From Bryum argenteum (lineage: Eukaryota > Streptophyta > Bryopsida > Bryales > Bryaceae): 64,000 bases of DNA. Below the pieces are notes generated by a model. That model was given only the letters and a program-made list of their open reading frames with translations, searched no databases and was not told the DNA's origin. This document shows positions 5,806 to 55,744 of this stretch, piece after piece; the stretch's first letter is position 1; each line of letters starts with the position of its first letter. The DNA lies in contig CM073327.1 in the NCBI GenBank assembly GCA_037043015.1, forward strand, positions 6,554,727 through 6,618,726, read 5' to 3'. Made by a program: the position numbers and the translations under genes.

Positions 5806-5915
5806 ACTTGCCCTGGTTCATTGACAAAGTGGTGCACATTCGTTGAGTGAAGCTGAGTGAGAAAATTAGTCGACGAGGACGAAGATGATTGATCATTCTG
5901 TAGATATTTGTTCCA
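5806..5915 (+). repeat. RbcX 3' flank segment, source-like copy of the mosaic repeat
   Basis: Starting 58 bp after the RbcX stop, this segment contains GGTGCACATTCGTTGA and ATTGATCATTCTGTAGAT-like sequence. Related sequence occurs at about 9630-9715 and 12443-12525, there joined to sequence resembling the NRDE2 last exon. It probably belongs to the RbcX 3' UTR or just beyond it. Confidence 0.6.
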
Positions 5916-6408
5916 CGCAGAAAGTATTTGTTCCCCGCAGAAGTATGTTCTGTGCACACAGTAAAAGTAAAGGAGGCTATGCAAATGCTAGCCAGATATT
6001 GCACATAATTCTTATTTTCATACTAAACAAATGATGGAAAATGCAACACTGTTTGCATGAATAGATCACGACCCTGTTGTTGTTGCAAAGTCTCTCTACT
6101 GTCCGAAGCACTTCCCAAGGAGATTAAGTGCTATGCACATTTGTATTACCCGTTTGTGGTAGCACTTGGTACCATTCTTGTGATTCCGATGCTTTGTGCA
6201 CGCTCTAGATTGTTTCTCACTTGGTAAATGTGGGATAGCAATTGTTGTTGAGGATTTCCCTCTTGTCATAGCCAAATGGGTATTATGAAACATTTTGAGG
6301 GATTAGGGGTTGTCTAATAGCCTATATCATATTAATTGTTAACCAGGTTGCACAATAAGATGCACAATAAAATGTACAATGGGAGACACAACCCCTTGAG
6401 TGCCTTTA

Positions 6409-7364: not shown

Positions 7365-9480
7365 GCAGGGGCCGTTCCAGTTTTTTCATACCCTTTTTGT
7401 GATGTCTTTTCATATTTTAGATATTGTTGGTACTAGTGTCTCTAGAGGGTTATACGACCCCTTGCTGCATTTTTTGAATAAAGGGCAACAGCTGAAATTT
7501 TAAAAGATGAACACTTGAAGTGAGGAGCGATAGGAAAAAGTGCTCTAACATATTATTAAAATGGTGATATCTATTTGCACCAAAGAACAAATAAAGTTCT
7601 CACTAATTTCCACTTAAAAACAATGTTTTGAGATTAGATTCCACTAGAAAGAATAAGTTTTCTTGCATAGTAAGTTTCTTTGACATACTCTGTGAAAAGG
7701 TTTCGTCATTTATGTAGAGCATCGAAAAAATTTCTCAGATTCTATTTGGAAACCTCTCTTGTGTCATCTACTCTCAATGGCGACAAAACTTGCAACTTGG
7801 CCCGTGGACCCTTTCTTCGCCCTTATTTGCCCCTTTTTTTTTCACTCATGTAAATGGGGGATGGAGGTACGCCCAATCGAATGCTCTCAAAATAATTAAT
7901 TCATTTTCCCTTTTGACAAGTGAATATGCACTTGAAACTCTGTTTGATTCAACACACTTCACAAATTTATAAAACGTAGCCCCTCGTTGATGTGAACATG
8001 CACTTACACTATTTTTGAATACAACACTCCACAAGATTATGAAAATTCTACAAAACTCTTTATGTAAACTTACCTTTTTTTGGTATTCTTATTTTGATTT
8101 AAATAAAAGAATGATTCTTTGATGCACTTACTAGCGAGAAATTACATATAGATGATACATGGATTAAAGAAAAAAAGTGATCAAATAACCTTAAGATAGT
8201 ACTGATGAAATTACTAACAGAGGTAAAAAAGTACAAAGGTTTTTGTTCAATTACAAGGAATTCTATCCTTTGCATTCTCGATCATTACGCCGAATAGAAT
8301 GCCTCGAGTTTTCTTTTCGTAAGAATTGTTGCTCTTTGGAGCCATTGGCCTAATGGGTTATGTTCAAGAGCCTCGCCAAATACCCCAGAAGTAATCGGAA
8401 GGTCAAGAAGAGGTCAAGAAAATTTTTAAAAATTTGAAAAGAGATTGTACCAAAAGTCATTAGCAAAAGAGAACCAAGACAAATTTGATTCACTAAATTA
8501 TCCAATGAAGACTTTTAATACCATTGTATGGAACAAAATCTGCGAGAAGATAATAAACCAATATTATCCAAAACACGAAGAGAAAAACCAATATTATCCA
8601 AAACATGAAGAGAAAACCAATATTATCCAAAACATGAAGAGATAAACCAATATTATCCAAAACATAAAGAGAAAATCCAATATTATCCAAAACATGAAAA
8701 AAAACACAAAAAAGTCTCGCTAAAACTTGAAAAGCCCCTACAACTTTACATGAGGTGAGGATCGATCCTCCGATGGTTGACCGCATGGTTGACCCTTACG
8801 TATCTTGAAACACCCATCCTCTAAAAGTTATCTTGAACCATATCCATATCTAAGAGCATAAATACATCTCTATATTGTATTTCTTCAACCTACTCTCTTG
8901 CTCTGACGACATAAAATACATCTTCATATTGTTTTTCTTCAATTTTCTCCCTTGCTTCTACACAGGGTCGAACCTCCGACAGCGAAGGCAAGTTTTGAAA
9001 GACATGCCATCTTTTTCTTGCCTACTGTCTTAGATCATAATGTTCATGTATTCTTCATATATTATATATATATCTCCATTGATACTTCTTTCTTTGCTTG
9101 TTTCACTTGCAATAGTTGTTTTTTACATTTCCGCTTAGCAATAGGCTTAATAAGTTGTTGTTTTACATAGATGGATGACAACAAAGATGTCCCGAAACCG
9201 AAGGTGGAGATCGGGTGGTTTCATATCCACGTTTGGTGGAACATCTTCATTTGAAATTGTCATCCGACAATCACCTCTTAGGATTGCACATGATCTCCAT
9301 GGAAGTTACTTCGGACACAATAAGACACTAGAGACCCTTAGCAACACCAGGGTCTAATCTTTTCATACAATGTGTATTGTGCTTTCCATCCATATGTTTG
9401 GTGAAACATGAAATGAAGATGTGAAGATTGTGTGCACTCTTTTGCGTGTAATGAATATTTGCAGATCAATAATCTCTGTT
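7365..9480. other. Gene-free AT-rich spacer with a short tandem array
   Basis: No ORF with recognisable protein character. The main structure is a five-unit tandem array at about 8552-8702 with a 29-31 bp period and core CCAATATTATCCAAAACATG. Units differ at a few positions and no unique spacers separate them. GGTTCGA-like B-box sequences near 6822, 6955 and 8965 hint at worn tRNA-derived SINE pieces but have no complete structure. Confidence 0.6.
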
Positions 9481-9502
9481 CTTGTCTTCAAACTTCAAAT
9501 AT

Positions 9503-9957
9503 TATGATATTTTCTCCTTCAATTTATGATCATCCAATCACGATACCAGTTATTTGTCTATGCAAGTGACTGTCATGTGGAATTCTGTGACCAGCTTGCC
9601 CAATTCCAGTTCAATTACAACACAATAGAGAAAGCGGTGCACATTCGTTGACCGAAGTTGAATGTGATGAAAATTAGATGAGGACAAAGATGGTTGATCA
9701 CTAGATATTCATTACACGCACTGTGGAGGATCGAGGCACACATTCCTCTCATCTAGTACTCTTTTGATTAAGAGCCAATGTTGCAACAAACGTATGAATA
9801 AAAACACTGAAAGTTTGTATAAACAGATTACGCGCAGAAAGATCTCATAAACATCTGAAAGTAGCCCTTTCTCTCGCATTATATGTAGAAACTCATGCAG
9901 CAACCTATCAAACAAGCTCTTCAATCGATGTAGTATACTATTACATCAAATGCTCAT
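9503..9957. repeat. Mosaic segment J1: RbcX 3' flank joined to NRDE2 last-exon sequence
   Basis: About 9630-9715 resembles the RbcX 3' flank (GGTGCACATTCGTTGA, GAGGACAAAGATGGTTGATC). About 9832-9912, read on the minus strand, encodes HIMREKG and SDVYEIF, close to EIMREKE and TDVYEIL in the last NRDE2 exon. A second copy lies at 12293-12866, so the TBP gene sits between two direct copies. The NRDE2 piece is a dead fragment with no surrounding exons. Confidence 0.7.
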
Positions 9958-10070
9958 TGATTTTCATAAACGCCCTGAAAAAGCAAAAAGCAATTGCTCC
10001 GTTGCCGAAAAGCAAGGGTATCCGCCCAATTGATGTGCACGATGGAAACAACCCGCTCGTCGATTCCTGA

Positions 10071-11798
10071 TCATGATCCTTGCGGGGGTCTCCATTGTGA
10101 GCCAACGGGATTGTAAGTCCCTTGCTGCGGCTGCCTGGCTTCTGAAACGGGATCCTGAACTTCTTGCGGGAGTCTCTGGACTCCGGAAACGGAAGCAGAA
10201 GCTCCTTGCGGAGGTCCCTGGACTCTGTGACTGGGATTAACAGATCCTTGTGAAGCTCCCATGGCGCTGTACCCGGATTTGGCAGATCCTTGCGGAGCTC
10301 CCGCGGCCCTGTAACCAGAGTTCGCATAGAATTGCTGAGCTCTCATGCCTCCGTTACCGGAATATGATCCTTGCGAAGCACCCGCAGCTCTGTAACCGGC
10401 ATTAACAGATCCTTGATGAGCTCCCATGCCTCCACTACCGGAACAAACAGATCCTTGCGGAGCTCCCATGCCTCCGTTACCAGAATAAACAGGTCCTTGC
10501 GGAGCTCCCACGGTTTCGTAACCGGAGTTGGCAGATCTTTGCGGAGCTCCCACAGCTGTATAACCAGAATTTACAGATCCTTGCTGAGGTCCCTGGACTC
10601 CGTAGGCGGTATTATGAGCGCCTTGAAACGCTCCCATGACTTTGTAATCCGTATTGACAGATCCTTGAGGAGCACCCCCGTTTCTGTACCCGGAATTGAA
10701 AGATCCTTGAGGAGCTCCCATGCCTCCGACATCAGAATAAACGGACCCGTGCTGAAGTCCCTCGACTCTGTAACCGGAATTGACAGATCCTTGCTGAGTT
10801 CCCACGCCTCCGTATCCGGAAGCTCCTTGCGGCGCTCCCATGACTGCGTATCCGGAATTAACAGCTCCATGCGGAGTTCCCATGGATCGGTTAATGGGAT
10901 TGACTGATCCTTGCTGGCGTTCCATGCCATCGTAAACGGAACTATGAGCTCCTTGCGGGTGTCCCATAACGTTTGAAAAGGATTTGCGATCTAATTCCGG
11001 CAATGTCATGTAACTGGCAACGGGATACATTGCTCCTCGCGGCGGAGGTTCCACGAATCTGGGCTTAAGAGCTTCTTGCGGCGAGGGTTCCATGACATTG
11101 GGAACGGCTTTCGAAGCTACTTTCTGCGATGATTTACCTTTCCTCGTTTCCAAACCAATTATGGGCCCAACGGGTTTCCTAACCAGCGTCAACACAGGAT
11201 AAATATTCTCGAAGGCTTGATAAAGATCCTCTCGAGTTTTGCCACCAGTGAGCACAACTTTTCCCGAAACGAAGATAAGCAAGCAACACTGCGGTGCTTT
11301 CATGCGGTAAATCAATCCCGGAAACAACTCCGGTTCGTAGGTCGTGAAGTGACCGTGCATGTAGGCCAATCCTTCCAGCTTGATAGGGAACTGAACGTCG
11401 GTAGAAGCAACCATGTTCTGGACCTTGAAGTCCTTAAATTCAGCCGGAAACCCTAGCTTCTGAATGATGCGCGCGAATTTCCGAGCAGAAAGCTTCGCGA
11501 GTTCCTCGCTTTTCGCGCCGGTGCACACCATCTTCCCTGAGGCAAAGATAAGCGCCGTCGTCTTTGGATCCCGGATGCGCATAATCACAGCGGTGAATCG
11601 GCGGGGATTGTACTCCGCGTTCCTTGCCTGCAGCGCGATCAACTTCAAGTCCAACTGACAATTCAAGCTCACGGTCGAAACCACGTTTTGTATGACGGGA
11701 ACTATTCCGGACGGGTGCCGAATATCCACACACTGCTCCATCGCTTCAGATTCCGAGCTTTTAAGCGTTGCGCCAAAAGCAAAGCTACTTATATCCAT
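10071..11798 (-). CDS. TBP: TATA-box-binding protein with a long repetitive C-terminal extension
   Basis: TBP nucleates TFIID and related pre-initiation complexes on promoters (family knowledge). 575 codons with no intron. Residues 27-208 form the two-repeat TBP saddle, very close to plant [85 protein letters not shown] and FENIYPVL. The four phenylalanines that kink TATA DNA are kept (F68, F85, F159, F176), as are the central asparagines N38 and N128. Plant TBPs usually end just after YPVL, at about 200 residues. Here a linker (209-277) leads into about 21 units of a 14-residue repeat running to the stop. The lack of introns suggests a processed copy, but the core has no damage, which argues for function. 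It lies between two direct copies of a mosaic repeat. Confidence 0.93.
10074..10967 (-). repeat. 42-bp coding tandem array in the TBP tail
   Basis: About 21 units of 14 codons, consensus [14 protein letters not shown], with conserved QG and frequent GY or NSGY. Two units are shortened ([25 protein letters not shown]). The unit length is a multiple of three, so other frames stay open too, including a 178-codon antisense frame at 10371-10907 that is a by-product. Composition (G, Q, S, Y, N; few charges) resembles low-complexity or prion-like domains. Confidence 0.92.
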
Positions 11799-11902
11799 GA
11801 TGGAGCTTTTCCTGTCAAAGTGTCAAGTGCTTCTTATACTCGATGCGGAGGAAGCTTTTACTGTCAACTGTGGATCTTTTACTATAGGAGTGCCTGTTCC
11901 TG

Positions 11903-11911
11903 CTATTTATA
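11903..11911 (-). promoter_or_regulatory. Consensus TATA box upstream of the TBP gene
   Basis: The minus strand reads TATAAATAG about 105-113 nt before the TBP start codon. That spacing would leave a 5' leader of roughly 75 nt. A weaker TATAAGAA lies near 11831-11837. A TATA box in front of a TBP gene allows autoregulation, which is an inference. Confidence 0.5.
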
Positions 11912-12049
11912 CTTGCCTAGCTATCGAAGCATCGGGAAGACCTCGGAAGTCCACTTTTGGTTTTATTGGGTCCCTCGGGGGAAGGGGAGGGCTGCGCAGG
12001 CCAAGGAGGTAGTGCAATACCGAGGCGACGCTCGCGGGTCCGGAGAACA

Positions 12050-12235
12050 AATGAAAAATACATGAAACAGTTTCTCTTATAGAAAGTGAATACTCTTCTC
12101 CGATTTCACGACTTTCTTAATTTCGAATGTCATAATTCAACATGTTATGTATATATATTCTCTATGTGGACTTTTACTTTTACTTTTACCTTTTGACATT
12201 TCCTTTTACTTTTTACTATATCCATGGTCCCTATT
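12050..12235. repeat. Segment shared with the UBC/NRDE2 spacer (copy 1)
   Basis: About 185 bp upstream of TBP that closely matches 17345-17550 upstream of the intronless E2 gene. Shared landmarks are TACATGAAACA, TTTCTCTTATAG, AATTCAACATGTTATGTATA and ATATCCATGGTCCCTA, in the same order and orientation. Two intronless minus-strand genes thus share a similar upstream block. Confidence 0.75.
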
Positions 12236-12239
12236 ACTG

Positions 12240-12866
12240 GTTCAAACCTGAAACACAATGATATTAATTACAGGTTCAAACCTGAAACACAATGATATTT
12301 TGTCCCTCAATTTATGATCATCCAATCACCATACCAGATAGTTGTCTATACAAGTGAACCAGATATTTGTCTATGCAAGTGACTGTCATGTGGAATTCTG
12401 TGACCAGCTTGCCCAATTCCAGTTCAATTACAACACAATAGAGAAAGCGGTGCACATTCGTTGACTGAAGTTGTGATGAAAATTAGATGAGGACAAAGAT
12501 GGTTGATCACTAGATACTCATTACAGGCACTGACACAGTACAAGGCACACATTCCTTGAACATCTACTCTTTTAAGAGCCAAATGAATGTTACAACAAAC
12601 GTATGACTAAAAACCCTGTTCAAATGTATGAACAGATCACGCAGAATGATCTCATAAACATCGACTCTTTCTCTCGCATTACATGTAGAAACTCAACAAA
12701 CTATCAAACAGAATTAAGTGAGCTTGTTCATACCCAGCCCGGCCACGAAAAAAACCATAACTACATTTCAGTATCAGCCTTTACTACATCGATCACTCAT
12801 CCTTTGCTACAGAACAGTTACCAAGCTCTTCAATCTATGTAGTACACTATTTCATCGAATGCTCAT
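12240..12866. repeat. Short tandem repeat followed by mosaic segment J2
   Basis: 12240-12300 holds two copies of a 36-bp unit containing GGTTCAAACCTGAAACACAA. From 12293 the sequence is a direct copy of J1: TTTATGATCATCCAATCAC, ATGTGGAATTCTGTGACCAG, GGTGCACATTCGTTGAC, then the NRDE2-like TTTCTCTCGCATTA piece. J2 carries an extra stretch of about 70 bp near 12730-12800 before the shared end TCTTCAATC(T/G)ATGTAGTA. Confidence 0.75.
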
Positions 12867-13297
12867 CTCATTCTCTAAATCCTCTTCCTCATCATCCTCG
12901 ATCGATCGATTTTCCAGCGGGTCCTTCACCTTCCTCTGTTGATCAGGAGCAGGAGCGTCCAGTGCCACAGTCAAGGGCACGAGATTGTTCCGATCTCCGA
13001 CGTTACGAACTCGCCCATGATTCCCGAGAGCCGGATTCATCTTCGTTGCAACACTTGCGACAACGCCTGGCACCATGTTTGTGAATGAGATTCCTATACA
13101 TGTTACCAGACTCTCCATCTCCAGCGTGCACTCTGGAGTCCAATTGAAAGTAGTCGGGCCTAGCAATGCCAGGATGCTGTTGTGGGCTGGAAGTTGCTTG
13201 GTAGGGCTGGCGTCTTGCCATAACCAGACGTGCATCAGGAACCATCCCAGCTCCACCTTCGTTCTCCGTCGGGACTTCTTCCATTTCCTGCACTAAA
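12852..13297 (-). CDS. Unassigned 3'-terminal exon-like ORF
   Basis: A good acceptor (AGTGCAG then GAAATGG, near 13290) opens two overlapping frames. The frame ending at 12852 runs through FNWTPECTLEMESLV, ISFTNMVPGVVASVATKM and GRVRNVGDRNNLVPL, and ends in a highly acidic tail (IEDDEEEDLENEMSIR) that looks like a true C-terminus. I do not recognise the family. No upstream exon could be placed, so this may be the last exon of a small gene or a duplicated gene fragment like its neighbours. Local GC content is clearly higher than in the spacers on either side. Confidence 0.35.
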
Positions 13298-13319
13298 CGC
13301 AACATAGTGGAATCGTTGG

Positions 13320-16300
13320 TGTAACTTCACCAACAACGGAAGCGAAGGAAAGCAAACAAACAAATGCAATATGGAGATATATATGGAAAATAGTAAACAA
13401 ATTTCTCTTTTCAATTATAAAGATTGAAGAAATTCTTGAACTAGTGAAGAGGTCTCACTTCTACTCCCGAGCTTTAACACATTAATTAAGCTTCATAAAA
13501 GAAAGTTTGGAGCAATCATCTTCAATAGGACCTTTCAATTGAGTCTCTAGAAGGCCAATTTTTTTAAATTTTTTTTTTAAATTTTAAAACTCCAAGTTTT
13601 GTTCTTTATGTGAACAAGTGCGGCGAGACCAACCGGGTTGGCTGTAACTTGTAAGTGCACGTCTTTTGTACTTGTAGTGGGTGAATAGCCTCATGTTTAT
13701 ACAAGTAAAAGAAAGAGATATCATTTATTGAAGCAAAGATTTTGATCAATCACAACCCTTTAAGGTCGACCAATCACAAATCTTGAAAAGTCGACCAATT
13801 ACAACCCCTAACAAGTTGATCAAGCACAATTCTTAAAAGGTTGGCCAATCAAAAGCCGTCAAAGGTCAACCAATCATGTTTTCGGAAAGAAGGTCATGGA
13901 CATCATGATTGTTATATTCTTTTGTTGCTTTGACACAAAAGACTTAAGTTGTAGTGAGGAGTTGCGAGGTATTTGTCGAGGGCTTTGTCAACTTTTCAAC
14001 ACGCTCTATTTGCGCATTCTTAACTTCCTAGTATTGAATGTTTGTAAGCTATTCAGTTCTTTACTTTCAAGTGTTAAAGGTTCATCTTGTTATTGAATTT
14101 TGGGGTCTTTATTTGATTATCTCTTTAGGAATCACTTAACTAGTTTTGGTCTATTAATCATTCACTTCTCGGTCGTTGAGCAAGGCAATTCAGCGTGACT
14201 AATTGAGACTAAGTTTCTTCTCAATGTTTGATTGATTCAATCTCAAGTTCTTTTTTTCTTTTTTTCTTTTTTTTTTTTTTTTTTTTTTTTTCTTTTTCTT
14301 TTTCTTCAAAAAATAAAGAAAACGGGAAGCACACTAAAGCTTGCAATGCTCTTGTAACATCAATTAACTCCTAAATGTAGATGATACATTAAATTTGTTA
14401 AATTTGTCAAATTTGGAAATGATTGGTGGAATGATGTTACCTCAAGAAACTACACGAAGTCAATCTCACGAAGTCAAATTGACCCTTCGGTGCCATTAGA
14501 TCACCTTCCATTTGTAGTTTAACTCCTAAATGTCCAAGAGATAAGAAGTTTAAACATTTTCTAAAATGAGCAAAGTGATAAGTAAATTTTAGATCATCTA
14601 CAAAGTGATTTAAGAATTTGTAATTGTAGGATCTTGTGGTATGAGAAGTTCCACTAAAGATTCAACTTTGTTCACAACAACGATTGTAATTCATGCATAT
14701 AATGAAAAATGGGCATTCTTGAAAAGAATTGGGTAGTTGACTTTGACTAAGCATTAAAACTTATTATAGTTTCCAAAATGAAGCCTCTTTTAAGAGTTTA
14801 TTGCACAAGAGGATTACCTAAAAATCTCTATCCATCTTGAAATTATTAGAGATTTACAAAATACCATTTATAAAGTTTGCAATAGATGAAATCTTGAGGC
14901 CTTTTTGCAGGACCCCATGGCCAGGTCACATAGGAATTTTGTAATTTGAAGAATGTCATCCCTTCATCAATACCTAAAGGGACTAGAAATTGATTTTCTA
15001 TTCCCTTCGTTGAGATAGATTCAAAACTATATATGTTTTTTCTCTTTGAATTTTTGAACAAGTGATAATACTAATTTTTTATGCTTGTATATAAATAAAG
15101 AAATAAAATGGTTGTCGAAGAAAGTAATTAGTGAAGATACGTATTAAAATAAGACACGATGGGAAAAGAAAATCACTCACCTTTGATTCAAAACTACCCT
15201 AACTCGTAAGCTCCCAATTATCATGCTACTTTCTGTGCCACCTATTGGAAACCGTAGAGCTTTTGTACTATAATTTTATTGGAGAATTTATGTCATAGTG
15301 CCGTAAAAGAATATAGAAAGGTCCTCTAATCATTCCATTGTAAAATGGTGTAAAATCAAAAAGGTGCTATATTCCGTTGAGAATGCATTTCAATGGAGTG
15401 GCTAAAGAAAGATTGCTAAATATAGGACCTCTTTGAATTTACACCCTTCCACAATGAACTTGTTAGAAGACCTTGCTATGATCTACCTTCTCCCACACCA
15501 AGACAAAATTCCAAAGTACTTGAAGTCCAAAAGAAAAGTTTTGAGGTAGTTCCAAAAGGGGGGTTGAAATCTTCCCAAAAGTTTAAGTTTACTTTGAGTA
15601 AAGGATGTATTTGGATGGAAGTTGGATGGGTAGGAGGGATGTGCTAGCCGCAACCTTTGGCACGTCTTGTTTGGGAGCCGCCAAAAGGTAGTCCACCGAG
15701 AAAGAAAAAAGACCTTTGCTGAACTATATTTAATGAGCCTTGTCTTTTTAGCGAGTTAATCTGTTGGAAATGTTCTCCACTGTTAGGAACTGGAAGAAAG
15801 TCTTTTGATATAGATTTTGAATTTCATCTTCCGATCATGCTCAATGATAAAAGAGAAATTTAATCACCACTTAAAAACCTCTTATAGAAACTAATTTTTA
15901 TATCTTAAGATTTTTTTTTTTTGAAAACCTATTGTTAGAAGTTAGAACGTCCTCCCACGCAATTTTAGTTCAATAAACAACTATGACATCTTGTAAAGTT
16001 AAGGATGAAGGGGTATTTAATCAAATGCATTAAAAATGAAGAAGTTACCTACTTTTCCTTCTTAGAAGCTCTCCGTAACCTTCATCCAAAGTTGTAAGCT
16101 CACCAACTTTGGCAAAAAGTCTCCAATGAAATTATAGTACAACATGGAGGATCGGATATGGAGGTTTTGGCCACCTATTATGTTATTGGAAGAGTCCCCT
16201 ACATAGATACTATTGCTCATGTTATATATACAAGATTATTCAATCGAAGTTCAAATTTTTGAAACTAGTAATTACTCCCTCATATCTATTAGGTAAATGT

Positions 16301-16767: not shown

Positions 16768-17244
16768 TTATTTCTCGTTTTCACAAGAGCTACCCTTGGC
16801 AAATTTCTTAGTCCAAGAGCGTGCGGTTTCTTCAAAGCTTGCATAGTCTCGTATATACTCGTCTGCAACCATTGCATCTTGAGGATTGTTTGGTTCCGGA
16901 GTGGCCAAAAGTAATTGAAGTGAGACTAGAGTAGTCTTGAGCGTTAAAGCCGGACTCCATTTGTTCTTCAAAAGGTCCAAACAAATAGCACCGGTTTGGC
17001 TGCTGACATTTGGATGCCACACTCTCGTAACAAAATGCATTTTCGGTGGCTCAAATGGATAGTCAGAGGGCAAGTGAATGTCAACAACAAACACACCACC
17101 CTCGTATGGGGTATCCACAAGTCCCTTGATAGTGCCACGCAAATGCATTAAGTCTTCATCTGAAAATTCGATGCTCACTCCAAACAATGTATTGTCACAT
17201 CTAATCTCTGCAATCTCCTTCTGGAATCTCCTTGTATTCAACAT
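16768..17244 (-). CDS. Ubiquitin-conjugating enzyme E2, UBC27/UBE2K type, without UBA
   Basis: E2 enzymes carry ubiquitin as a thioester and pass it to substrates with an E3 (family knowledge). 158 codons, intronless. The UBC fold is complete: DTPYEGGVFVVDIHLP, DYPFEPPKMHFVTRVW, the HPN triad at 77-79, the catalytic cysteine C88 in GAICLDLLKNKWSPALTLKT, and EPNNPQDAMVADEY. The SSQTGAICLD and TPYEGG features point to the UBC27/UBE2K group, whose members carry a C-terminal UBA domain. This protein stops after FAKGSSCENEK. Past the stop, other frames give faint UBA-like strings (KLIDGF, IRKVMAAEELC), suggesting a decayed UBA. The ATG at 17244 is preferred; the upstream in-frame stretch is hydrophobic and unlike the family. 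No introns plus the lost tail suggest a processed copy. It may still be active, because the catalytic core is intact. Confidence 0.8.
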   Translation of the reverse strand: MLNTRRFQKEIAEIRCDNTLFGVSIEFSDEDLMHLRGTIKGLVDTPYEGGVFVVDIHLPSDYPFEPPKMHFVTRVWHPNVSSQTGAICLDLLKNKWSPALTLKTTLVSLQLLLATPEPNNPQDAMVADEYIRDYASFEETARSWTKKFAKGSSCENEK

Positions 17245-17344
17245 GATGAACAATCCAATGATAATGGTCTCAAAAATAAACTTAAAGGCAAGAAGTGCTC
17301 GGAAGAGGCACCTTGGAAGTAACAAGGTGTGCAAATAGGAAGAA

Positions 17345-17550
17345 CAGATGAAGTATACATGAAACAAGTTTCTCTTATAGGAAGTGAATACCCTCCTTCC
17401 GAGTCACAACTTTCTTAATTTCTACACATGCTGATTGTTATAATTCAACATGTTATGTATATATATTCTCTACATGGACTTTTACTTTTGACTTTTGACA
17501 TTTGCTTTTACCTTTTGACATTTGCTTTTGCTTTTTGTTATATCCATGGT
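17345..17550. repeat. Segment shared with the TBP upstream region (copy 2)
   Basis: Matches 12050-12235 in order and orientation. It lies about 100 bp upstream of the E2 start codon and downstream of NRDE2. It holds T-rich stretches such as CTTTTGACATTTGCTTTTAC and a TATATATA run. Confidence 0.75.
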
Positions 17551-17933
17551 CCCTACTTGTATTACTTTTCTACATGTTCACGTATCGTTTCTTACACTTT
17601 TACATTCTAACTCTTTGAATTCTCTTATCTACTTAGATCCATGTTGTGTTCTTGTCTACTTCCTTCGTTCAAGAATATATTTCCGAATGAAAGAAGTGAC
17701 TGCCTGCTTTGATCTAGTGCTAGCAAGTTTCCATTCTGAAAAAGAAAAAAATTGTGTGCACACATTTCAAGTAGAGGAAGGTGAGAAATGGTATCCGAAT
17801 ATTCCACGCAGTCCTCAAAATCTACTCTATTGGAACATGATGTTACACCAAAAATATGGATGGAAATAGCAACACTCATTCTATGAACAGATTACAGAGT
17901 GTCTCCCACCCAGTGCGTCCCACGGAGTTCAGA

Positions 17934-28026: not shown

Positions 28027-28642
28027 TTTGAACACCATTCTTTCATCTGGAGAGCCTTCGTAATCGTTCTTTGGGAGCTTTGAAATTGCTTTCTGTTCAT
28101 AAGGATCTCGTCATTGTTTGTAGCCGTCTCAATCATCGCCCCTCCCGATCTACTACAGCGACAAACCAGAGATTCTCACGAGTGAAGCCTTGTTTTGCTC
28201 CAGTTCCAATAATGCCCGGTACTTTCACCGTTATTTCAGGACATCTTTCACGAAAGCATTCTCAATGAAATCTATGTTACCTTACCATAAGAAACACCAT
28301 ATCAATCACTTCATTTTAGTTAACTTGTGGTTGCCTCTTGTATTCATACAATATATACATGGTGGAAAAGCTCTTTGCTTATTTAATTCTATCCTGCTCA
28401 TTTGCTTGTTGTGTCCTCTCTTCCTTCTCCTTCTCAACACGTTATCAGCACCATGAGCTCTTTCTTATTCTTGCTATGGCTCTATTCTTGCTATGGCTCC
28501 TCCGCCACAGCTTTTCATAGCTTGTTGCTGACTTCGCATGTGTTATTTATACACTCTTTTTGTTCTTTTCACCTTCTTTTAGATCATTTTTCTGCTAATC
28601 ATTTGTTTTCACGCTTGTTGCGAAGTGTTTTTTGCAATTTTT

Positions 28643-29293
28643 GGAAAGAGCTTGCATAGGGTTAGATACATAGCTTTTTGTAAAGAGCTTGCTTAGAGTT
28701 TGCATAAGACCAGAGCGGGCACCACTGCACAACACCTACACCAATTCAATACAACAAAGCTTCAATCAGGCTCGAATTTCTCACCCCCATTTTTATGTTA
28801 TTTTTTATTATGCAATATACTATACTTTCTAGTATAAATCTTATGTGTAAATTGATTTTTTTCCCTTACTCTACACAAGTAGCTGGATTCTCTCTATGAG
28901 TGTTATGGCAAGAAAATGATATGAACTAGTTGTCAAAAGATTTTGAAGATTTTGACTCTTCTCTCCTCTGAATCTCCAAAATCTTTTGTCAACTAGTTCA
29001 TATCATTTTCTTGCCCCACCACTCGTAGAGAGAACCCAACAACTTGTGTACACTTAGAGGATTAAAAGCATTTTATTGATAAGGTTTTTACTGGAAAATA
29101 TAGTATATTGCATCATAAAGCAAATCAAGGAACTAAAATAATATAAAAATAGGGGTGAGAAATTCGAGCATGATTGAAGCTCTGTTGTAGTGAAGTAGAG
29201 TAGGTGTTATGCGGTGATGCGCTTTGATGCGCTTTAGTCTTAGGCAAGCTCTCTACAGAAAGTTATGTACGAAACCTTATGCAAGCTTTCTCC
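28643..29293. repeat. Large foldback (inverted repeat with almost no loop)
   Basis: Two arms of about 310 bp, 28643-28951 and 28970-29293, are inverted copies. Near the centre they pair almost perfectly (GATATGAACTAGTTGTCAAA against its complement); outward pairing is looser (CTTCAATCAGGCTCGAATTT against AAATTCGAGCATGATTGAAG). It could be a foldback transposon or two pieces of one element inserted head to head. No target duplication is obvious. Confidence 0.8.
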
Positions 29294-31327
29294 AAAAAAA
29301 ATTATGATGACGAACAAAATCAAAAGTATCTCAGCTCTTACATCTTTGGCCACACTTCGGACCTTCACTAATCCATTCACTTTCTAGAACTTACTAGTAT
29401 CTTGATAACATAGTTTCTTCACTTTACTTACGTCGTGATTAAGTGGTTGTATTCATATATTGTATTCATATATGTGGTTTTAGAAAGCTTTACCTTACGT
29501 TGAGTTCAATGTGATTTTAGAAAGATTTACCTTCTCTAGAATACCCTACACAGAATAAAACCCTATCTAAATTATAACCAAACAAATAATCAAAACTGTA
29601 AGGTAGAGTATTGTCAACCACCTACTCCATATAAAAAATAATCAAGATTTTGAGATGAGATACTTCTCTTTGAGTAAAAGATTTCTCCACCTCTATCATC
29701 ATCGTTGCTACCATCACCACTAATACTATTTGCGGTATCCGTTCCAAACCAATCTATGTGTGAATCTTTTATTAGCCTAAAGTTTTGAAGAGTTGGATGA
29801 ACTCTTTCTCTAATAGCTTCCCAATTAGGTATAAAACAATCTTATAGTCACTGATGAGAATTTAAGAATTGTTTCTTTGACAAAATCTTATATCTCAAAT
29901 TTTGTTGCTAATTAATACTTCCTTCATTATATAGGAAAAGAAAAATAGAAAGTCAAAGTGATTGTTATCAAAAGACAAAGTGGTTGCGATGATTGCTTTG
30001 TCTACAATAAATGCTTGAATCAATACTTGCTCTTTTTACACAATAATAAGACTAAATAGTGTATTTCTAATATGCCCTTTATAAAACTTGTCAAGAGTGC
30101 ATTGTCCGCGGCCTCTACAACTTTTCTCGCACCTGTATTATGATTTTTATTTTACTTATAAATATTCTTAGTTTGACTTCTTATTGCAAAATTTTTTCAA
30201 AGTGATTTTTGATAGTTTATTATTTATTGATTTAAAAATCTTGTTGACATTCTCTGACCTACATATGTATTGAGGTATTTGACAAGACACTTGTACATAG
30301 CCCATTTGATTACCGCAACAACTATTACAATAGTGCAAGGAAGTGCGTGAATTATTGTAGAACAATACAAGTGTCATGGCTTCAAGATGATATCCAATTC
30401 CTACTAGTTTCTTTAATTCCTAAAAGTCCAAGGGCTTTGGAAAGAAACTTAGATGTGTTATAAAATGTGTGATTCCGTGATTCTTATGACAACTTTCTTA
30501 AATGACAATTTGAAGATCTCAATGCTTGATTTAGATAATACAATTAGATTTTTAAAGATATAACTTATTTATTTTATGATGTACTTTAGACACTAAGTAA
30601 TTGACAATCAATTAAACAAAATATATTTTTAGTAATTCAAATCTGATATACTTAGCTAACATTATCTATTATACAATAACATTGAGAAAAGCCACTAATA
30701 ACCTAAGAGAAACACCACCTATTTCCCAAAATAATAAGTTTTTTAATACTAAGTAAACCTTGTCGTGTTTGTGTTTGGAGGTTTTTAGTGAACAATCTAT
30801 GAATCCAAACAAGGTTTTCAAATTGGATGTGGTACCTAACTCACCAAAAAACTTGAAAACAAAAATACATTCCAAAAAAATTATTTTTTTAGTCTGGTAC
30901 AACTTCTTAAAACTCAAAATTGACCATAAAATAATTGATTGGGCTCTCACAGATTAATATTGATGCAAGCCCAACTATGGTAATGATATCTTAATTGTTG
31001 TGATAAATTTGGCTAAATAGAAATATGTTGCTTGCGCATGTTAAATAAGGTGTGTGAAGATTCTTGTTAAATGACATTCAATTCTTTGTTATTTAATAAA
31101 TTGTTTAGAAAAATGACCTCCTTTTATCTTAAGGCATAGTGTCTTGATTTTCCTGAGACCATATACATATAAGCCATACAAGAATCACATAGACTTGTAA
31201 ATAATTTCTTCAATTTATGAAGACATTCATACATAAGAACATCCTTTGAGATATTTTAGCAACAAATACGGTTTCCCCATTGTTTGTTGTTTCACTTGCT
31301 TGCTACGAGCAAGTTTGAGGCCATTGT
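29294..31327. other. Gene-free AT-rich spacer
   Basis: I see no gene, RNA gene or clear repeat in this stretch. ORFs are short and of random composition. Confidence 0.6.
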
Positions 31328-31331
31328 TTAA

Positions 31332-32266
31332 CCCTTTCATGACCACTCCTGTTTTGGAAGTCGAGGTTTTTTTGAGGTGTCTGGATGTATTTTGGAGTGC
31401 ATCGAACAAATGAAGGGTCAAAATTAAGATTGACCGTATAAATGTGTAGTGAACTTCATATACATGCTAGTGGCCAAACATGGGTCAGATCTACCTTATG
31501 AACTAGAGTATTATGATGTTCCGAGTCAAGTGTAGCACATAGCGTATACATGACCTCGAAGCTTTTTACTAGAATTAGAGACCAGAATATCCATATTTGG
31601 GCAAAAGACATGTGGTCAATATTGTAGAGAGTTTGAAGATCTATCCAACAACACCATGAGCGTTTCAGCGTTGCATTTCGAGCATTTATGGAACTTAAAT
31701 TGTGAAAAGAGACCAAGAACCCAGTTCCTTGTATACGGTAGCGTACGAGAAATACATAGGATATCGTAGCAAATATGGTTTGATTGAAAAATCAGACATG
31801 GTCACATTCATCAAACGTCGAGCCTTGACGTAGAATTAGTGTGCAAACAACATGTGGTTGATTCTTTTTGGGGAAGATTTCAGGTTGTACAAAAGTATAC
31901 ACTTCGGTAGACGGTGTTGGGTTGCCAAAAGAAATCAACGGAGCCAATTGAGTAGTACCCCCCATGTTCCCATGTTCCCAAGGGACCCTTAGAATTGGTG
32001 TCAGGTGTCCTTGACAGTTGTATTTCATGAATCTTTCTCACTTCTTAATTTCCAGACCAGCTACCGTATCTCATACTCATCACCATGTATAAACAGCTCT
32101 ACCAGGCGGAGTACGAGTCCAAATGCATCGTTGTTTTGTGTAGTAGATCCAACACACACTCCTAACGGCGTTGTTCTCTAACATTTTGTTGTTTCTACAT
32201 AGATTCTACTCATCATGGAATAACCACACTTCATCGACCATATTTGGTTGATTGGTCATGAAAGGG
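31332..32266 (-). mobile_element. TTAA-flanked 0.94-kb piggyBac-like element (copy 1)
   Basis: 935 bp between TTAA at 31328-31331 and TTAA at 32267-32270. Ends are inverted: CCCTTTCATGACCA on both sides, read inward. A second copy in the opposite orientation lies at 54787-55727 and is about 90% or more alike by eye. Both keep a short coding-like stretch, here on the minus strand: FGNPTPS, YTFVQPE, PHVVCTLILRQGS, ECDHV. No full transposase is present. Strand is given by that relic. Confidence 0.85.
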
Positions 32267-32999
32267 TTAACTTGAACAAGTTATTTTAAAAATTTGCAAA
32301 AAAAATAAAAAATGTTGCAAATCTTCGCTCCTTTGTAAAAGTGTTTTATCACCGCTATGTGCACATGCTATCAATTTCTACATACTTCGTATAGTAAGAA
32401 GCAAATGATTGTTTAAAGCACTACAAATGATTTTTTGGATTTATTCCTTCAAAACATTGTTCATAAATATGAAGAAGTATCATTACAACACACAAATTGT
32501 AAAATAACCACCCTACCTTTTGCTATGGTGTTACAAAGCTTTTGGGTGTCCTTAGCAACCTAGAATTTAGAATCAATTTCAACAAGGTTACCTTCTCGTT
32601 TTGTTCCCCGAGACGAGAACTAAAACCCATAAAAATTTGGCAAGATTGTTATATGAAATTGAAATCTGAAAGTGATTTTGCCAGAAGTGCACCTTGGGTT
32701 CTTTGCCTACTTTATGAAAGTACTCATCAATTAAAAATTTAATGAATTATTCTAAGTCCTCCAAATACTTCTAACTCGAATGTTCAAGTCTTACCCTTTG
32801 TGTCAATAAATTTATATCCTCCGCGACTCTTATTGAATTCGTAATTTGACTCTGTGTATTAGTTGACCACGTTGACAATTGTGTAAATCCTCAAATAAAT
32901 GTAGGGCATACATGTATTGTTATTCTGATATATAAATATAGGGTATTAAACTTTTTGCAACCTTGCAATGTTCCACAACAAATAATGAAGGATAATGTT

Positions 33000-40884: not shown

Positions 40885-41762
40885 GTAATATTGTTGGAAG
40901 CAACAAGTCATTGTCAAATGGTTGTGGCTTCTTGCGAAAGCCGGAAGCCTCTTGATGACCGGGAAAGTTGGAAATGCAAAATGGCGGCTCATTACCGCCA
41001 TGGCCCGAACCTTGTTCGACTCCGCCAAGGAGCCTCGTTGATTCACATTGTCGCTCGCATTGACCCATTGAATCATTTTTCTTCTGGTGCTTGTTGCAAT
41101 GGCGATGGATGGTCAAGCTACTGTGTTTCTAACTACGAGGCGTGCTCACCGTTCAGATGCGATGCCAAAGCTCGGGAAGGTAAATTTTAATTCCAACTCC
41201 TTTCTTGTTTATTTCAATTCAATGTAGTACCGCCACTTGCAACAAGATAGCTTTGATTGGTATTGAGTACCGAGTGCGGAATAATTTTGTTTGCACTCCC
41301 TCACTAATTGTTGCTTACTCTGTTGCACAACGAGGAGTGGCAAATCGTGATGATACAAATGACGACAGAGAACTTCCAAAACGACGGATGCTCGAAGCTC
41401 TCCAGGAGGTGGTGAGAGGTGTTGAGGACTGGGACGTACTTTCACGCACGAGGGAGAAGAAGTTTCTCAAGGAACTTGACGCTCTGAAGAAGAATGAGGC
41501 ACTTCTTCGTGTAAGACTTGAGGCTGTACACGAAGAATGTGAAGCTCGGGAGAAGCTAGAGTCACAACTTAGGGAAGAGATTAACACACTAAAGAAGAAG
41601 CTTGCAATGAAAGAGGAGGAAAAAGACCAAGAGCGCAAGAAATTCGAGTACGATATTGAGCACAGAAAGAAGATGAAAACTCTTCTTATTGGTAGTAGCT
41701 CGCATTATCAAAACAATTTGGAACACTTTCAAAATGCTTCAAAATATTCTGTTACATTCTAA
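40885..41762 (+). pseudogene. Copy C: truncated coiled-coil/UBP12-like gene
   Basis: Exon 1 (41099-41179) is intact: MAMDGQATVFLTTRRAHR to KLGK with a GT donor. The exon-2 acceptor, TTGCAG in the intact copy, reads TTGCAC here, so normal splicing should fail. The exon-2 coiled coil is well kept (RRMLEALQEVVRG, VHEECEAREKLESQLREEI) up to KTLLIG. Sequence then jumps to the equivalent of the intron after exon 2 (GTAGTAGCTCGCATTAT), losing the rest of that exon and all later exons. Probably a pseudogene; a short coiled-coil protein could be made if another acceptor is used. Confidence 0.7.
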
Positions 41763-44937: not shown

Positions 44938-45125
44938 TGCCCCGCCGAACATTCTTCCACTCCTCCGCTGACGAGTTGCTTGATTGCATTGCTACCGAGC
45001 AGTGTTCCACTCTGCCGAGGAGCCCCGCTGGTTCACATTGTCGCTCGGTCGAGGAGCCCAGCTGATTCACATTGTCGCTCGCAATGAGCCATTGAATCAT
45101 TTTTCTTCTGGCGATTGTTTCCACA

Positions 45126-48100
45126 ATGACCATGGATGGTCCTACTACTGTGTTTCTAACTACGAGGCGTGCTCAACGTACTGCCGCTAAAGATTTAGAG
45201 CACCGTTCAGTCAAAGATGCGACGACAAAGCTCGGGAAGGTAGTGTTCCAACTCCGTTCTTGTTTATTTCAATTCAGAGTAGTACCCCCACTTGCAGCAA
45301 GGATAACGTTGCTTGGTGTTGAGGATCGAGTGCGGAATAACTTCCTCACCAATTGTTGCTTACTCTGTTGCAGCGAGGAGCGACAGATCGTGATGATACA
45401 AAGGATGACAGAGTATTCCCAGTATTCCCAAAACGACGGATGCTCGAAGGTCTCCAGGAGGTGTTGAGAGGTGTTGAGGAATGTGACGTACTTTCACGCA
45501 CGAGGGAGAAGAAGTTACTCGAGGAACTTGACGGTGTGAAGAAGAGTGAGGCACTTTTTCGTGAAAGACTTGAGGCTGTACATGAAGAATGTGAAGCTCT
45601 GGAGAAGCGAGAGTCACAACTTAGGGAAGAGATTAGCGCACTGAGGAAGAAGCTTGCAACTAAAGAGGAGGAAAAAGACCAAGAGCGCAAGAAATACGAG
45701 TACGAAATTGAGCACAGGAAGAAGGTAAAAACTCTCCTTATTGGTGAGCGCAAGGAGTTATTGAACAAGATATCTACATTGAAGGAGAAAGAGTCAGTTT
45801 CTCAAATGCAAATGAGCAATGCGCTAAGGAAGGCAGAGGCATTGCATCTTCGAGTCCAGAAAAGGTTACTCTGTAACATTGACAGGCGGAAGAAAACTGA
45901 GACGGTTCTTCTCCAAGACCGTGGAGAAATCATCAAAGTTATGTCGAAGAGAATTCATGCATTGAAGAGGAGAGAAAAACAACTCCTCAGAGAGGGTAAG
46001 AAAAGTGAGGTAATTGTAGACCTATTCCCAATTTCTGTTTGCCCGAAGTGAGACATATCATTGCATTCAAAATATCAGTAGTAGTAGCAGCTCGCATTAT
46101 TAAAACTTTCATATATTTCTCTTATGGCTTGTTTTTGTCTCAGGTTAAGCTGCGCAAAGCCATGGATAGGACCATCAAAATATTATGTGATGTGACTCAG
46201 AAGGTCCGTTCCCTTGCCGTGACTGTTGAGGAGGCCCATCAGGTTGTATTCCAAACCCATATTACTTACTTTACATTGTCTAGGTTTTACCACCTTCGCT
46301 GTGGAAGTGAATTTCAAAAGGAGAGGTGAGAAAGCCTTCCAAGCTAACGAAGAAATATGAATAGCTTTTTGGAAGTCAGAGGACCGAGTTGCCTATGGGA
46401 GTACCAAGTACTTTGACAAAATCTTGGAAGGAAGCGAAGAATGCCATCAAGTGTGCAGAAGTTGCCTTTACTGAAGCTGCCATAAGTTCGAAAAAATCTC
46501 TCGACACCGTCGAGATCATGAAATCCTCTTGTCGAGAAGGCATACTGGATAGAATCATGGGACGCAAGGAGTATGTTCGGGAGCACGCTTCTGAAGTAAA
46601 TGCTACCCTTGCTCAGGTATATCATATTTTCCTTCTCGCATCACGAATGGTTGAGACTATGTGAACACACCATTGCTACTTCCGTTGCATTGTGTATATC
46701 GAGCTTGGGTTCTTTTGCAGGAATGTCTGCACCCATGTGACCAGCCAGAGGTGACACTACACCCGGAGGCTACATTGCGGCCATGTGACGAGCCAGAGGT
46801 GACACTACACCCGGAGACTACATTGCGGCCATGTGCCGAGCCAGAGGTGACACTACACCCGGAGGCTACATTGCGGCCATGTGACCAGCCAGAGGTGGCG
46901 CTTACTGAGCCGAATGAATTGGACACAGTCAAAGTTGCTTACCACAATGCCAAAACAGAGGAGGTATGCAGTTTGTTTCTTGATCCTAGCTATTCACGAT
47001 GCATACTACCTGTCTAGTATGTAAATTTTGACATGTGACCTTCATATTGCAGGTATCAACTCACAAATTTAGCTTTCCGAAGAACAGTTGTGTAGATGAC
47101 CTTATCAAGGAGTTAAGAGCGAAGGTAAAATGACTTTTCAATTTTAGGATTTTCGTCTCAGTATTTCTCTTTTTCATATTTTGGAGGATATTGATTCATA
47201 CCCTTGTGCGACCTACTGTTTGAGTGGTGACAGCAAGGATAATCGTGTTGGTTTTGGTTAGGTGGAACTCTCAAGCCCAAACGCAGAATTGAGAATTCTT
47301 GCCGTTTTTTATCACAAAATTTTTAAGGTAAGCGCGTCTTAAGTTCTTGTGAATCTTACAACCAATGTATAAGAATTTTGATATCAGAAGTGTGAAAGGC
47401 CCTCAATCAATCGAATTAGAACAGGGAACGTAGCATGCAATTTTGTGACTGACATCATCCGTCACATGGTTCTGGTTCTTAGCTTGGTTGAGAATTGCAG
47501 ATTCTCTCCGTAGATGAGAAGATTAAGAGCATCACCGACGACTTATGGACCCTGCGAGCTGAAGAGGTTTTTCAAGACCTTCCTTTTTTCCTTGTTCTTA
47601 CATTGTGCTATAAAATGTCTTAAAATGTCATTCCTTAGTTTTGTTCTCGCTAGTTGTTAATTTGTTACGAAGAGATGCAGGTTCCAGTCGAGGAGAAAGA
47701 AATGGGTGTCAACGATCGTTTGATTCATTGTTATCATTTCCTCACAAATGCCGGACAAAAGCACAAGGTACATGGACCTTAACTGCAATTAAATTCTTCT
47801 TTTTCTGTACACTTGGTTTTTCTGAATATCTGGTTGTGAAATGTTGATCCGACCTCTCCATTCTCAACTCTTCCCACTTATTATTGAACCGATAATTTTC
47901 ACCCTAATATGAAACGATCACTGTGACACGTTTATATCATTATCCTTTCGGTCAAGATGCTTGCTATATGTTTCATTTTTTGCAGATACAGAATTTTGGT
48001 GAACCGTTCTTTCTGGTCGTGAGGGAAAACGAGACGCTGGCGGAGGTTAAACTCCGAGTCCACCAGAAACTACAAACACCGAATGAGAAGTTTCTGAAGG

Positions 48101-50385: not shown

Positions 50386-52293
50386 CTAGAGAATCACAAT
50401 GCAATCTTGGTACACTTGTGAAGTAGCAGCAGCAGGATTCGAGCGGCAAATATCATCGTGCAGGGTGGCAGCGACTTGGAGTCCCCGCTCCGAATCATCA
50501 AGTCCCTGGATGATGGCATACCCACTCTTGTTCTTCCGTTTCCAGAACGCATGAGGCTGCTTCGACCCATCCAACGAGTGCACAACCGAGTCTTTGTTCT
50601 GCGCAATCTTCACGTGCTCAAGCACCCGCTTCCCGAGCACCGAGCTTTGGTGCACAAGGTAATTCAACACAGCTTTGTCATGGAAGCAACGGCGACTCTT
50701 CTTCTCCAAAGCTATCCGGACGATCTCAGTCGCCATCTTGTTGCTCAGTTTCCGCACCCAGTCGAGCCTCCCCATCGCAAAGCTGGAGCTCACCACCACT
50801 TTCTCCCGAAGCTTCCGCCATAGCTCGTCGTTGTAGAAGAGGCTGGGAGAGTCTGGCCAGGATTGATCCTCGCCTGAGAGGTAGAGGTGGTGGCGGCGCC
50901 GGACTGGGGAGAAAGGATCCCCGACTATGAGCACTCCGTTTACTGGGGTAAGGATTACGTTTTTGTACTTGGTGCGAACCATTCCGAGTATCATGTCGTA
51001 GCAGACCCAGCGGCGAAGCTGTGCGTCGGGGTCGTCGAAGAATCCGCTCATTTCGTTGTGTGCGTCGAGTTCTTGCATTGCGAATCCGACTATGCTACCG
51101 TAACGGGAGCGGGTGCGCTTTGGGGGCTTCGAGTGATTGCCCCACATCACTTGCTCCGCTCGTGACTGATCATCTTTGAATGACATTGGATTGAACGGCG
51201 ACAACGTTGAATTCGAGGTAGAATCTGAAACAAAAACACCCACTACTTCGTTAATATTGGTTACGATGGTAGAATGAGCACTACACTACTTTCTGATCCT
51301 TGTCATAAGAGTGATTACTAGGCCCTATACTAGTTTCAACATATCCTTGATAATCTCGAAGCAACAATGGTGAGACTACGAACCTTCAACACTACACTCT
51401 CACAAGATTTCTCGACAAGGCCTGTTTCGAAGCTAAAATAGATGAATTTGATAATGTGGTAACAACAATGATGGGAGTACTATTCCTTACGAGGGTGAAA
51501 TATTGCTAGTTCCTAGTGAGGAGTGCGAACCTGATGCAATTGACGAAGCCAACAAGCGTTGGAAACTAGCTTCTTCTTCCACGATAACATCCACAAGCTC
51601 TGGAGGAGCGAGGGAAGCAGTTCCGGGGAAAAGCACCACCACATCCGCGCGCGCAGTGGCGCCGCTTCGATGAAGCGTCCGCAGAAACAAACGAAGATCA
51701 GCACTGGTCGTATTCTCGGACAGATGCGCCACTAGCAACTCTCGCATCACTCGCGTCCCTCGCCGAAACAACGTCCCCATGCCTTGTAACGCCCGCTCTG
51801 TCGGCGCCAATGGTTTCATCACCGGGTGGCTCATCATCACTACCACCTTGCTGCTGCTTTTCAATCCCCTCCATCTCCTCGAACTGTTCCAACCAATCCC
51901 AAAACCCCGACGTTAAAACCAATCCCACAATCCCGAAACCAATCCCACAATCCCGAAACCAATCCCACAATCCCGAAACCAATCCCACAATCCCGAAACC
52001 AATCCTACAGACAACTCCAACAGTTCTAATCTTATACCTCAATCATATCAAGCTCCATCAGTACTAATCCTAAACCTCGATCATAACTAGTACGCCAGCA
52101 GTTACCCTAGACAATCGGAGCAAGGCAGCTACCTGGCGGGGCTTTGCAGGGTCGGCCATGGCGGGGGCTGGTTGTGGGGATTCTCGACGTCGAGGACGTT
52201 GATGGAGAACGCAGTGAAGGAGCAGTAAACGAGGAGGCTGATTCCGAGGAAGAACGTGAACAAGTAAGGCGCTCGGAATGGAGAATCGCCCAT
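50386..52293 (-). CDS. Membrane-anchored plant protein of unknown function (DUF7780-like)
   Basis: Three exons (minus): 52293-52133, 51883-51531 and 51224-50386, giving 450 codons. The start is the ATG of MGDSPFRAPYLF. Residues 8-34 form one hydrophobic segment, suggesting a type II membrane protein of the secretory pathway. Exon 2 encodes APTERALQGMGTLFRRGTRV, TTSADLRLFLRTLHRSGATA and RADVVVLFP. Exon 3 encodes RYGSIVGFAMQELDAHNEM, RRWVCYDMILGMVRTKYKNV, PVNGVLIVGDPFS, RCFHDKAVLNYLVHQSSVL and QVYQDCIVIL at the end. From memory this resembles an uncharacterised plant family including Arabidopsis At4g12700. The layout recalls Golgi glycosyltransferase-like folds, but no catalytic motif is certain. 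Convergent with the UBP12-like gene, whose stop is 820 bp away. Confidence 0.75.
51921..52000. repeat. Four identical 20-bp tandem units in intron 1
   Basis: AATCCCACAATCCCGAAACC is repeated four times without a change, followed by a partial unit, within the intron between exons 1 and 2 of the membrane-protein gene. Exact identity implies recent expansion and likely length variation between individuals. Confidence 0.9.
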
Positions 52294-54560: not shown

Positions 54561-54786
54561 TTAAAGTCTAAGTTGGAGCTTATTGGTGAGAGAGGAATGT
54601 TAATTTAAAGAATTAATAAGTGACTTTGAAAATATGATTAACTCAAATGAATCTTAACTTGTTTTTTTTTTTTTTTAAAATGGCTAAGTGGAATGAAAGT
54701 TGACGTAGGTAGTATTGATTGTCATTCAACTTTAGGCTAGAAAGAGCATCTCCACCCATATGCTCTCAAGTAACATATACGATTAA

Positions 54787-55727: not shown

Positions 55728-55744
55728 TTAAACTTGCAAGCGAG

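What the first reader, a model, noticed from the sequence alone, without database searches (positions are those of the whole stretch)
10071..11798. TBP with a 21-unit, 14-residue C-terminal low-complexity tail
The sequence shows an undamaged TBP saddle with all four DNA-kinking phenylalanines, then a linker and about 300 residues of [14 protein letters not shown]-type repeats before the stop. Canonical plant TBPs end right after the second repeat, and known variable tails (as in human polyQ) are N-terminal. A Gly/Gln/Ser/Tyr repeat fused behind the saddle could drive condensation or recruit factors at promoters. The gene is intronless, suggesting a retrocopy that gained a new domain.
Basis: partly seen in the sequence, partly recalled or inferred. 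Interest (0 to 1): 0.82.

Follow-up and report, generated by a model that had tools for sequence, protein, structure and literature searches.

The report
TBP paralogue with repeat-grown tail
A plant-like genome carries an unbroken, intronless and unusually divergent copy of the TATA-binding protein with a long repetitive tail at its end; the DNA-binding part looks maintained, while the tail looks like an expanded repeat kept open but not finely tuned.

Summary
An intact 575-codon ORF (10071-11798, minus) encodes a TBP core (residues 30-208), a linker and a tail of 21 units of about 14 residues plus a part unit. The core is unusually divergent: 135 of 179 positions identical to Arabidopsis TBP1, against 145 for human-yeast, with 21 changes among 139 sites identical in all three. 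The four kinking Phe and 23 of 23 positions checked (roles recalled) are kept, and the 21 changes are conservative (P about 5e-5): a fast but constrained paralogue. Between tail units pN/pS is 1.03 (0.80-1.38): no sign of residue-level constraint. Yet there are 0 stops where neutral drift predicts about 6 (P about 0.006). The tail looks like an in-frame minisatellite kept open, not a finely selected domain. The gene lies in a GC-rich island among duplicated fragments of its neighbourhood. Retrocopy origin is plausible; no poly-A run or target-site repeat was found. Expression, a second normal TBP and orthologues could not be tested: no genome is held. Condensation or factor recruitment remains conjecture.

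The parts
10071..11798 (-). Intronless TBP-paralogue ORF, 575 codons plus stop
11712..11798 (-). N-terminal extension, residues 1-29
   Evidence: the best PDB chains match from residue 24 on
11175..11711 (-). TBP core (saddle), residues 30-208; 135 of 179 identical to Arabidopsis TBP1
11094..11174 (-). Linker, residues 209-235
10968..11093 (-). Three very degenerate 14-residue stretches, residues 236-277 (assigned by spacing, weak)
10095..10967 (-). 21 tandem units of 14 (19 of them), 12 (one) or 13 (one) residues, residues 278-568
10074..10094 (-). Part unit of 7 residues before the stop
11904..11911 (-). TATAAATA box 113 nt upstream of the ATG (candidate promoter)
   Evidence: sequence match only
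11136..11137 (-). GT of the only 5'-splice-like site (AAAG|GTAAAT) that one narrow pattern found in the ORF; use not shown
12044..12233 (-). Promoter-like segment B, 79.6% identical to 17341-17555 upstream of an intronless E2 ORF
9487..9957 (-). 3' flank A, matching 12275-12866 in two pieces (79.8% and 91.1%); includes a stretch that resembles the last exon of NRDE2

Best explanation
This is a diverged, intronless paralogue of TBP whose saddle was kept under protein-level selection after duplication and which therefore most likely still bends TATA DNA and receives TFIIB. It carries a C-terminal, presumably disordered tail that grew by tandem expansion of a 42-nt unit in frame. Shown: the anatomy, retained contact residues, conservative core changes, the open frame, no residue-level constraint detected between tail units. 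Inferred: that it is expressed; that it acts as a second, specialised or partly redundant TBP; that the tail acts by bulk properties (length, low charge, Gly/Ser/Gln/Tyr content), as a flexible appendage, rather than by a precise binding motif. The gene probably arose by retroposition or another copying event that put a GC-rich segment of about 2.1 kb among duplicated fragments of the NRDE2-E2 neighbourhood.
For: Intact 575-codon ORF. 23 of 23 positions checked for recalled roles are identical to the yeast and Arabidopsis residues. Differences from Arabidopsis avoid sites identical in three kingdoms: 21 of 44 against 34.2 expected, hypergeometric P 2.6e-7. The 21 changes are conservative: mean BLOSUM62 1.0 against -0.42 for random single-nucleotide changes, 1 in 20,000 draws as high. 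Tail: 0 stops in 291 codons while the five other frames have 2, 10, 5, 25 and 10; neutral simulation gives 6.1-6.5 stops on a star tree, P 0.002, and 6.2 on a distance tree of the units, P 0.006; both length variants are multiples of three. pN/pS between 19 units 1.03, 95% 0.80-1.38; inner 14 units 0.85; nearest pairs 1.06. GC 0.475-0.57 from 10000 to 12000 against 0.34-0.395 in the 600 nt below and 400 nt above.
Against: No expression data. The normal TBP of this species is unknown, so part of the core divergence could be lineage-wide. Stop-codon tests assume a simple substitution model; homogenisation by unequal exchange would purge or spread stops and weaken them. From the 3.4% stop rate of random core substitutions I estimate by hand only 1-2 stops expected in the core, so their absence there says little. 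Disorder of the tail was not measured: the fold predictions were too poor to use.
Confidence: 0.55

Rival explanations
1. A young, non-functional or weakly transcribed retrocopy that has not yet been hit by a stop; core divergence and tail expansion are drift.
For: Intronless; core less like Arabidopsis TBP than yeast TBP is (135 against 153 of 179); tail pN/pS about 1; locus built of duplicated fragments.
Against: Core changes are conservative and avoid invariant sites; tail stops absent, P about 0.006; 23 of 23 checked residues kept.
Confidence: 0.22
2. The tail is a selected, multivalent Tyr-bearing domain (works like the repeat tail of RNA polymerase II or FUS-type domains, both recalled) that drives condensation or recruits factors at chosen promoters.
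For: 17 Tyr, 38 Ser, 63 Gly, 32 Gln in 298 residues, 14 Lys/Arg and 9 Asp/Glu; Gln enriched over neutral expectation from the consensus (0.109 against 0.044, 0 of 1000 simulations as high in each of two runs), charged and aliphatic residues and Cys/Trp somewhat lower than expected, at the edge of significance; a polyQ expansion in human TBP is reported to lower its phase separation (PMC10047669, passages).
Against: pN/pS about 1 between units; Tyr, Gly, Ser, Pro and aromatic content not above what neutral drift from the consensus predicts; Tyr at unit position 12 in only 11 of 19 units.
Confidence: 0.13
3. The tail is not in the main protein: splicing from the AAAG|GTAAAT site at 11137 removes it and the product is a near-normal-length TBP.
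For: The site matches the 5' splice consensus (recalled) well and lies about 12 codons behind the core.
Against: Two presumed introns of NRDE2 next door, bounded by eye, have GC 0.38 and 0.37, the tail 0.546; 291 repeat codons have no stop. No 3' splice site was looked for.
Confidence: 0.07

Closest known systems
Canonical plant TBP (Arabidopsis TBP1/TBP2)
   Same: Two-repeat saddle sequence, four Phe, TFIIB stirrup residues
   Different: 75% identity to TBP1 only, an N-terminal extension of another sequence, 367 extra C-terminal residues; intronless, where plant TBP genes have introns (recalled)
TBP-related factors TRF1, TRF2, TRF3 (animals)
   Same: Diverged paralogue of TBP; PMC10005294 (passages) says that TRF1 and TRF3 can bind a TATA box and TRF2 has lost an intercalating Phe
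   Different: All four Phe kept here; orthology to any of them not tested
N-terminal variable region of TBP, incl. human polyQ
   Same: Low-complexity Gln-bearing repeat attached to the saddle
   Different: Other end of the protein, 14-residue unit instead of a homopolymer
RNA polymerase II C-terminal repeat domain
   Same: Works-like analogy only: Tyr/Ser/Pro-bearing tandem repeat at the C terminus of a core transcription protein (recalled)
   Different: Another unit, and no residue-level constraint seen between units

Membership tests
TBP family (Pfam PF00352) | Two TBP repeats above the curated cut-off | tested here: met
   216.9 bits against cut-off 22.9, 2 stretches
TBP family (Pfam PF00352) | Four DNA-intercalating Phe | tested here: met
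   residue roles recalled
TBP family (Pfam PF00352) | TFIIB stirrup residues E186, E188, L189 (yeast numbers, recalled) | tested here: met
TBP family (Pfam PF00352) | Predicted saddle fold | tested here: inconclusive
   Single-sequence AlphaFold2 gave mean pLDDT 33 and 37; not usable
TBP family (Pfam PF00352) | Binds and bends TATA DNA | not testable with these tools
   needs protein
Canonical plant TBP | Ends shortly after the second repeat | tested here: not met
   367 residues follow residue 208; the six best PDB chains, all taken as Arabidopsis TBP1, align to within 3 residues of their end
Canonical plant TBP | Core as conserved as among kingdoms (145-153 of 179 in pairs of Arabidopsis, human, yeast) | tested here: not met
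   135, 130 and 130 of 179
Retrogene | No introns where the parent has them | tested here: inconclusive
   No break in the core alignment; the parent gene is not available, plant TBP introns are recalled
Retrogene | Poly-A remnant and target-site duplication | tested here: not met
   Longest A run 4 in 601 nt behind the stop; longest word shared by 302 nt of 5' and 221 nt of 3' flank is 7, as in most of 200 shuffles. Not filed as a retrogene for that reason; an old copy would have lost both marks

The most novel reading that the evidence does not exclude
A plant-lineage TBP paralogue that evolved a repeat tail behind the saddle, a CTD-like multivalent appendage that rewires initiation at a subset of TATA promoters, selected for composition and length rather than sequence.
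Probability: 0.15. Interest if true: 0.75.

Novelty: new variant of a known kind. Interest (0 to 1): 0.42.

Why it matters
TBP is among the most conserved eukaryotic proteins, and its variable part is normally N-terminal. A kept paralogue with a 367-residue C-terminal addition would show that promoter-bound TBP tolerates, or uses, a large flexible appendage at that end, and would give a natural case for asking whether disordered tails on general factors are selected for bulk properties. If it is only a drifting copy, it is an ordinary example of a minisatellite growing inside a dispensable ORF.

Tried and rejected
Whole-genome search for a second TBP: no genome is held. No second TBP-core match in the window itself (tblastn, E up to 10). 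Relatives in viral contigs: core alone, no stretch matched a pattern; tail, 8 stretches matched a pattern, 0 were relatives; core alignment, 60 stretches matched, 2 were relatives at 49-51% identity with no such tail in the ORFs seen (L001 is open at its 3' end). Core alignment in prokaryote genomes: 30 stretches matched, 0 relatives. Tail against PDB: one chance-level match, E 0.035; tail against Pfam: none at E 1. Structure prediction of the whole protein and of residues 1-208: too poor to use. Plant origin of the core from private residues: weak, 4 of 16 Arabidopsis-private, 3 of 24 human-private and 4 of 20 yeast-private sites shared; the 'plant' label rests on the PPR gene in the window and on Arabidopsis chains being the best PDB matches. 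Poly-A remnant and target-site duplication: not found. Ten paper searches; searches returned nothing; in the other listings, of which I saw titles and the start of abstracts, nothing pointed to a TBP with a C-terminal repeat tail; one search was about chimeric retrogenes, not TBP. The library is open-access only.

Rows dropped: the units of 12 and 13 residues, the part unit and the three degenerate stretches were left out of the pN/pS, codon-position, composition-simulation and stop-simulation counts (19 of 21 units used); the six-frame stop counts used all 21. The inner-unit figure used 14 units.

Full report
OBSERVATION. The ORF at 10071-11798 (minus) is exactly as described: ATG to stop, 575 aa. 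Pfam gives TBP at 216.9 bits. phmmer against PDB aligns residues 24-208, best with chains taken as Arabidopsis TBP1 (about 312-313 bits, E down to 2.8e-92), then animal and fungal ones (most at 283-292 bits) (the organism behind each chain is recalled). Behind residue 208 come a 27-residue linker, three 14-residue stretches that I assign to the array on spacing alone, 21 units and a 7-residue part unit. Tandem Repeats Finder sees the array independently. No other TBP-core match lies in the window (tblastn).

THE CORE. The core (179 positions) is identical to Arabidopsis TBP1 at 135, human at 130 and yeast at 130; those three agree pairwise at 145, 149 and 153. So it is farther from any of them than they are from each other. 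Of 139 positions identical in the three, 21 are changed. The 23 positions that I checked because of roles that I recalled are all kept as in yeast and Arabidopsis, among them the four Phe, N69, N159, V71, V161, T124, T215, E186, E188 and L189 in yeast numbering. Of 44 differences from Arabidopsis, 21 fall on three-kingdom-invariant sites against 34.2 expected (P 2.6e-7). The 21 are conservative, 14 with a positive and 4 with a negative BLOSUM62 score; mean 1.0 against a null mean of -0.42 (P 5e-5). The four negative ones are C164T, I202C, V203C and F237V; K151E and K167Q change charge. This is what a duplicated TBP evolving fast under protein-level constraint would show. The caveat is that the species' normal TBP is unknown.

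THE TAIL. The tail (residues 278-575) has 298 residues: Gly 63, Ser 38, Gln 32, Ala 31, Val 25, Pro 21, Tyr 17, Lys/Arg 14, Asp/Glu 9. No Pfam family matches it at E 1. Among the 19 units of exactly 14 residues third codon positions are not more diverse than first or second ones (0.410, 0.386, 0.322). pN/pS is 1.03 with a bootstrap interval of 0.80-1.38, 0.85 for the 14 inner units and 1.06 for nearest pairs. The same measure in the five other frames gives 0.80-1.16, so the coding frame does not stand out. Composition is mostly what neutral drift from the consensus would give; Gln is higher (0 of 1000 simulations as high), and charged and aliphatic residues and Cys/Trp are somewhat lower, at the edge of significance. 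Against drift, the frame has no stop in 291 codons, where the other frames have 2, 10, 5, 25 and 10, and neutral simulation expects about six (P 0.002 star; P 0.006 on a tree). Both odd-length units are in frame. I read this as selection for an open frame, by length or bulk properties, without detectable selection on the unit sequence. The last units are the most decayed (units 20 and 21: 2 and 3 of 14 matches to the consensus); next are inner unit 6 (5), unit 19 (6) and units 1 and 2 (7 each). So decay at the edges, the usual mark of an array that is renewed from the inside by unequal exchange, holds with an exception.

SURROUNDINGS. The region 10000-12000 is GC-rich (0.475-0.57 per 200 nt) in a GC-poor neighbourhood (0.34-0.395 in the five adjoining 200-nt windows). 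The edges of the duplicated flanks put the unique segment at about 9958-12043. Upstream, 12044-12233 matches 17341-17555 at 79.6%; the latter lies about 100 nt upstream of an intronless ubiquitin-conjugating-enzyme ORF (16768-17244; UQ_con 1.4e-42). The gene beyond matches NRDE2 (PF08424 in 2 of 6 ORF pieces given). The 3' flank of the TBP gene (9487-9957) is a second copy of 12275-12866, and both contain a stretch that aligns with the presumed last exon of NRDE2. So the TBP segment lies among local duplicates of the NRDE2-E2 junction. A TATAAATA box lies 113 nt upstream of the ATG, inside the GC-rich stretch; segment B has its own CTATAAGAG stretch, shared with the E2 gene. Retroposition fits the missing introns, but the longest A run behind the stop is 4 and the flanks share no word longer than chance. 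The TATA box would have to be a later gain, or the copy was DNA-borne.

ORGANISM. No genome is held. A PPR protein with 11 PPR_2 stretches in one ORF points to a land plant; the species is not established.

LITERATURE. Passages of PMC10005294 describe TBP as a conserved C-terminal core with a variable N-terminal domain, and name TRF1-3 as the known paralogues. Passages of PMC4972966 say that retrocopies can survive by recruiting regulatory elements at the insertion site, and that ten algal candidates probably gained new UTR exons. Passages of PMC10047669 report phase separation of human TBP and its decrease by the disease-associated Gln expansion. Ten searches listed no paper whose title or abstract start pointed to a TBP with a C-terminal repeat tail; subscription papers and sequence databases of plants were not searched.

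VERDICT. A real, intact, divergent TBP paralogue with a real C-terminal repeat array. The core is probably functional. The tail is probably a tolerated or loosely used appendage. The strong claim (a new condensation or recruitment domain) has no direct support yet and mild evidence against it; a selected composition is not excluded.

Noticed in passing
16768-17244 minus, with 17341-17555: Intronless ubiquitin-conjugating-enzyme ORF (158 aa; HPN and a catalytic-type Cys by eye) that shares its upstream segment with the TBP gene: two unrelated intronless genes behind copies of one promoter-like segment.
   Followed up: partly
9487-9957, 12275-12866; in part 5820-5919: Copies of a mosaic; the first two contain a stretch like the NRDE2 last exon, the third repeats another part (9625-9720). 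The locus was built by repeated local duplication.
   Followed up: partly
13223-13392 minus and 9058-9237 plus: Two short related stretches (58 nt at 74% and 43 nt at 77%) in opposite orientation on either side of the TBP gene, in the presumed exon of an unknown gene without a Pfam match.
   Followed up: partly
31326-32270 and 54783-55733: Inverted copies, 91.4% identical over 964 columns, some 22.5 kb apart; possibly a mobile element.
   Followed up: no
28638-29298 and 63744-63979: Long self-complementary stretches (75.8% over 681 and 70.9% over 251 columns).
   Followed up: no
41020-41693 and 45044-45745: Duplicated stretches, 81.5% identical, with ORFs that look coiled-coil, in a region of several further repeats (33-45 kb).
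   Followed up: no
50386-51285 minus: ORF of 299 codons that matches PF25002 (DUF7780), E 1.5e-37.
   Followed up: no
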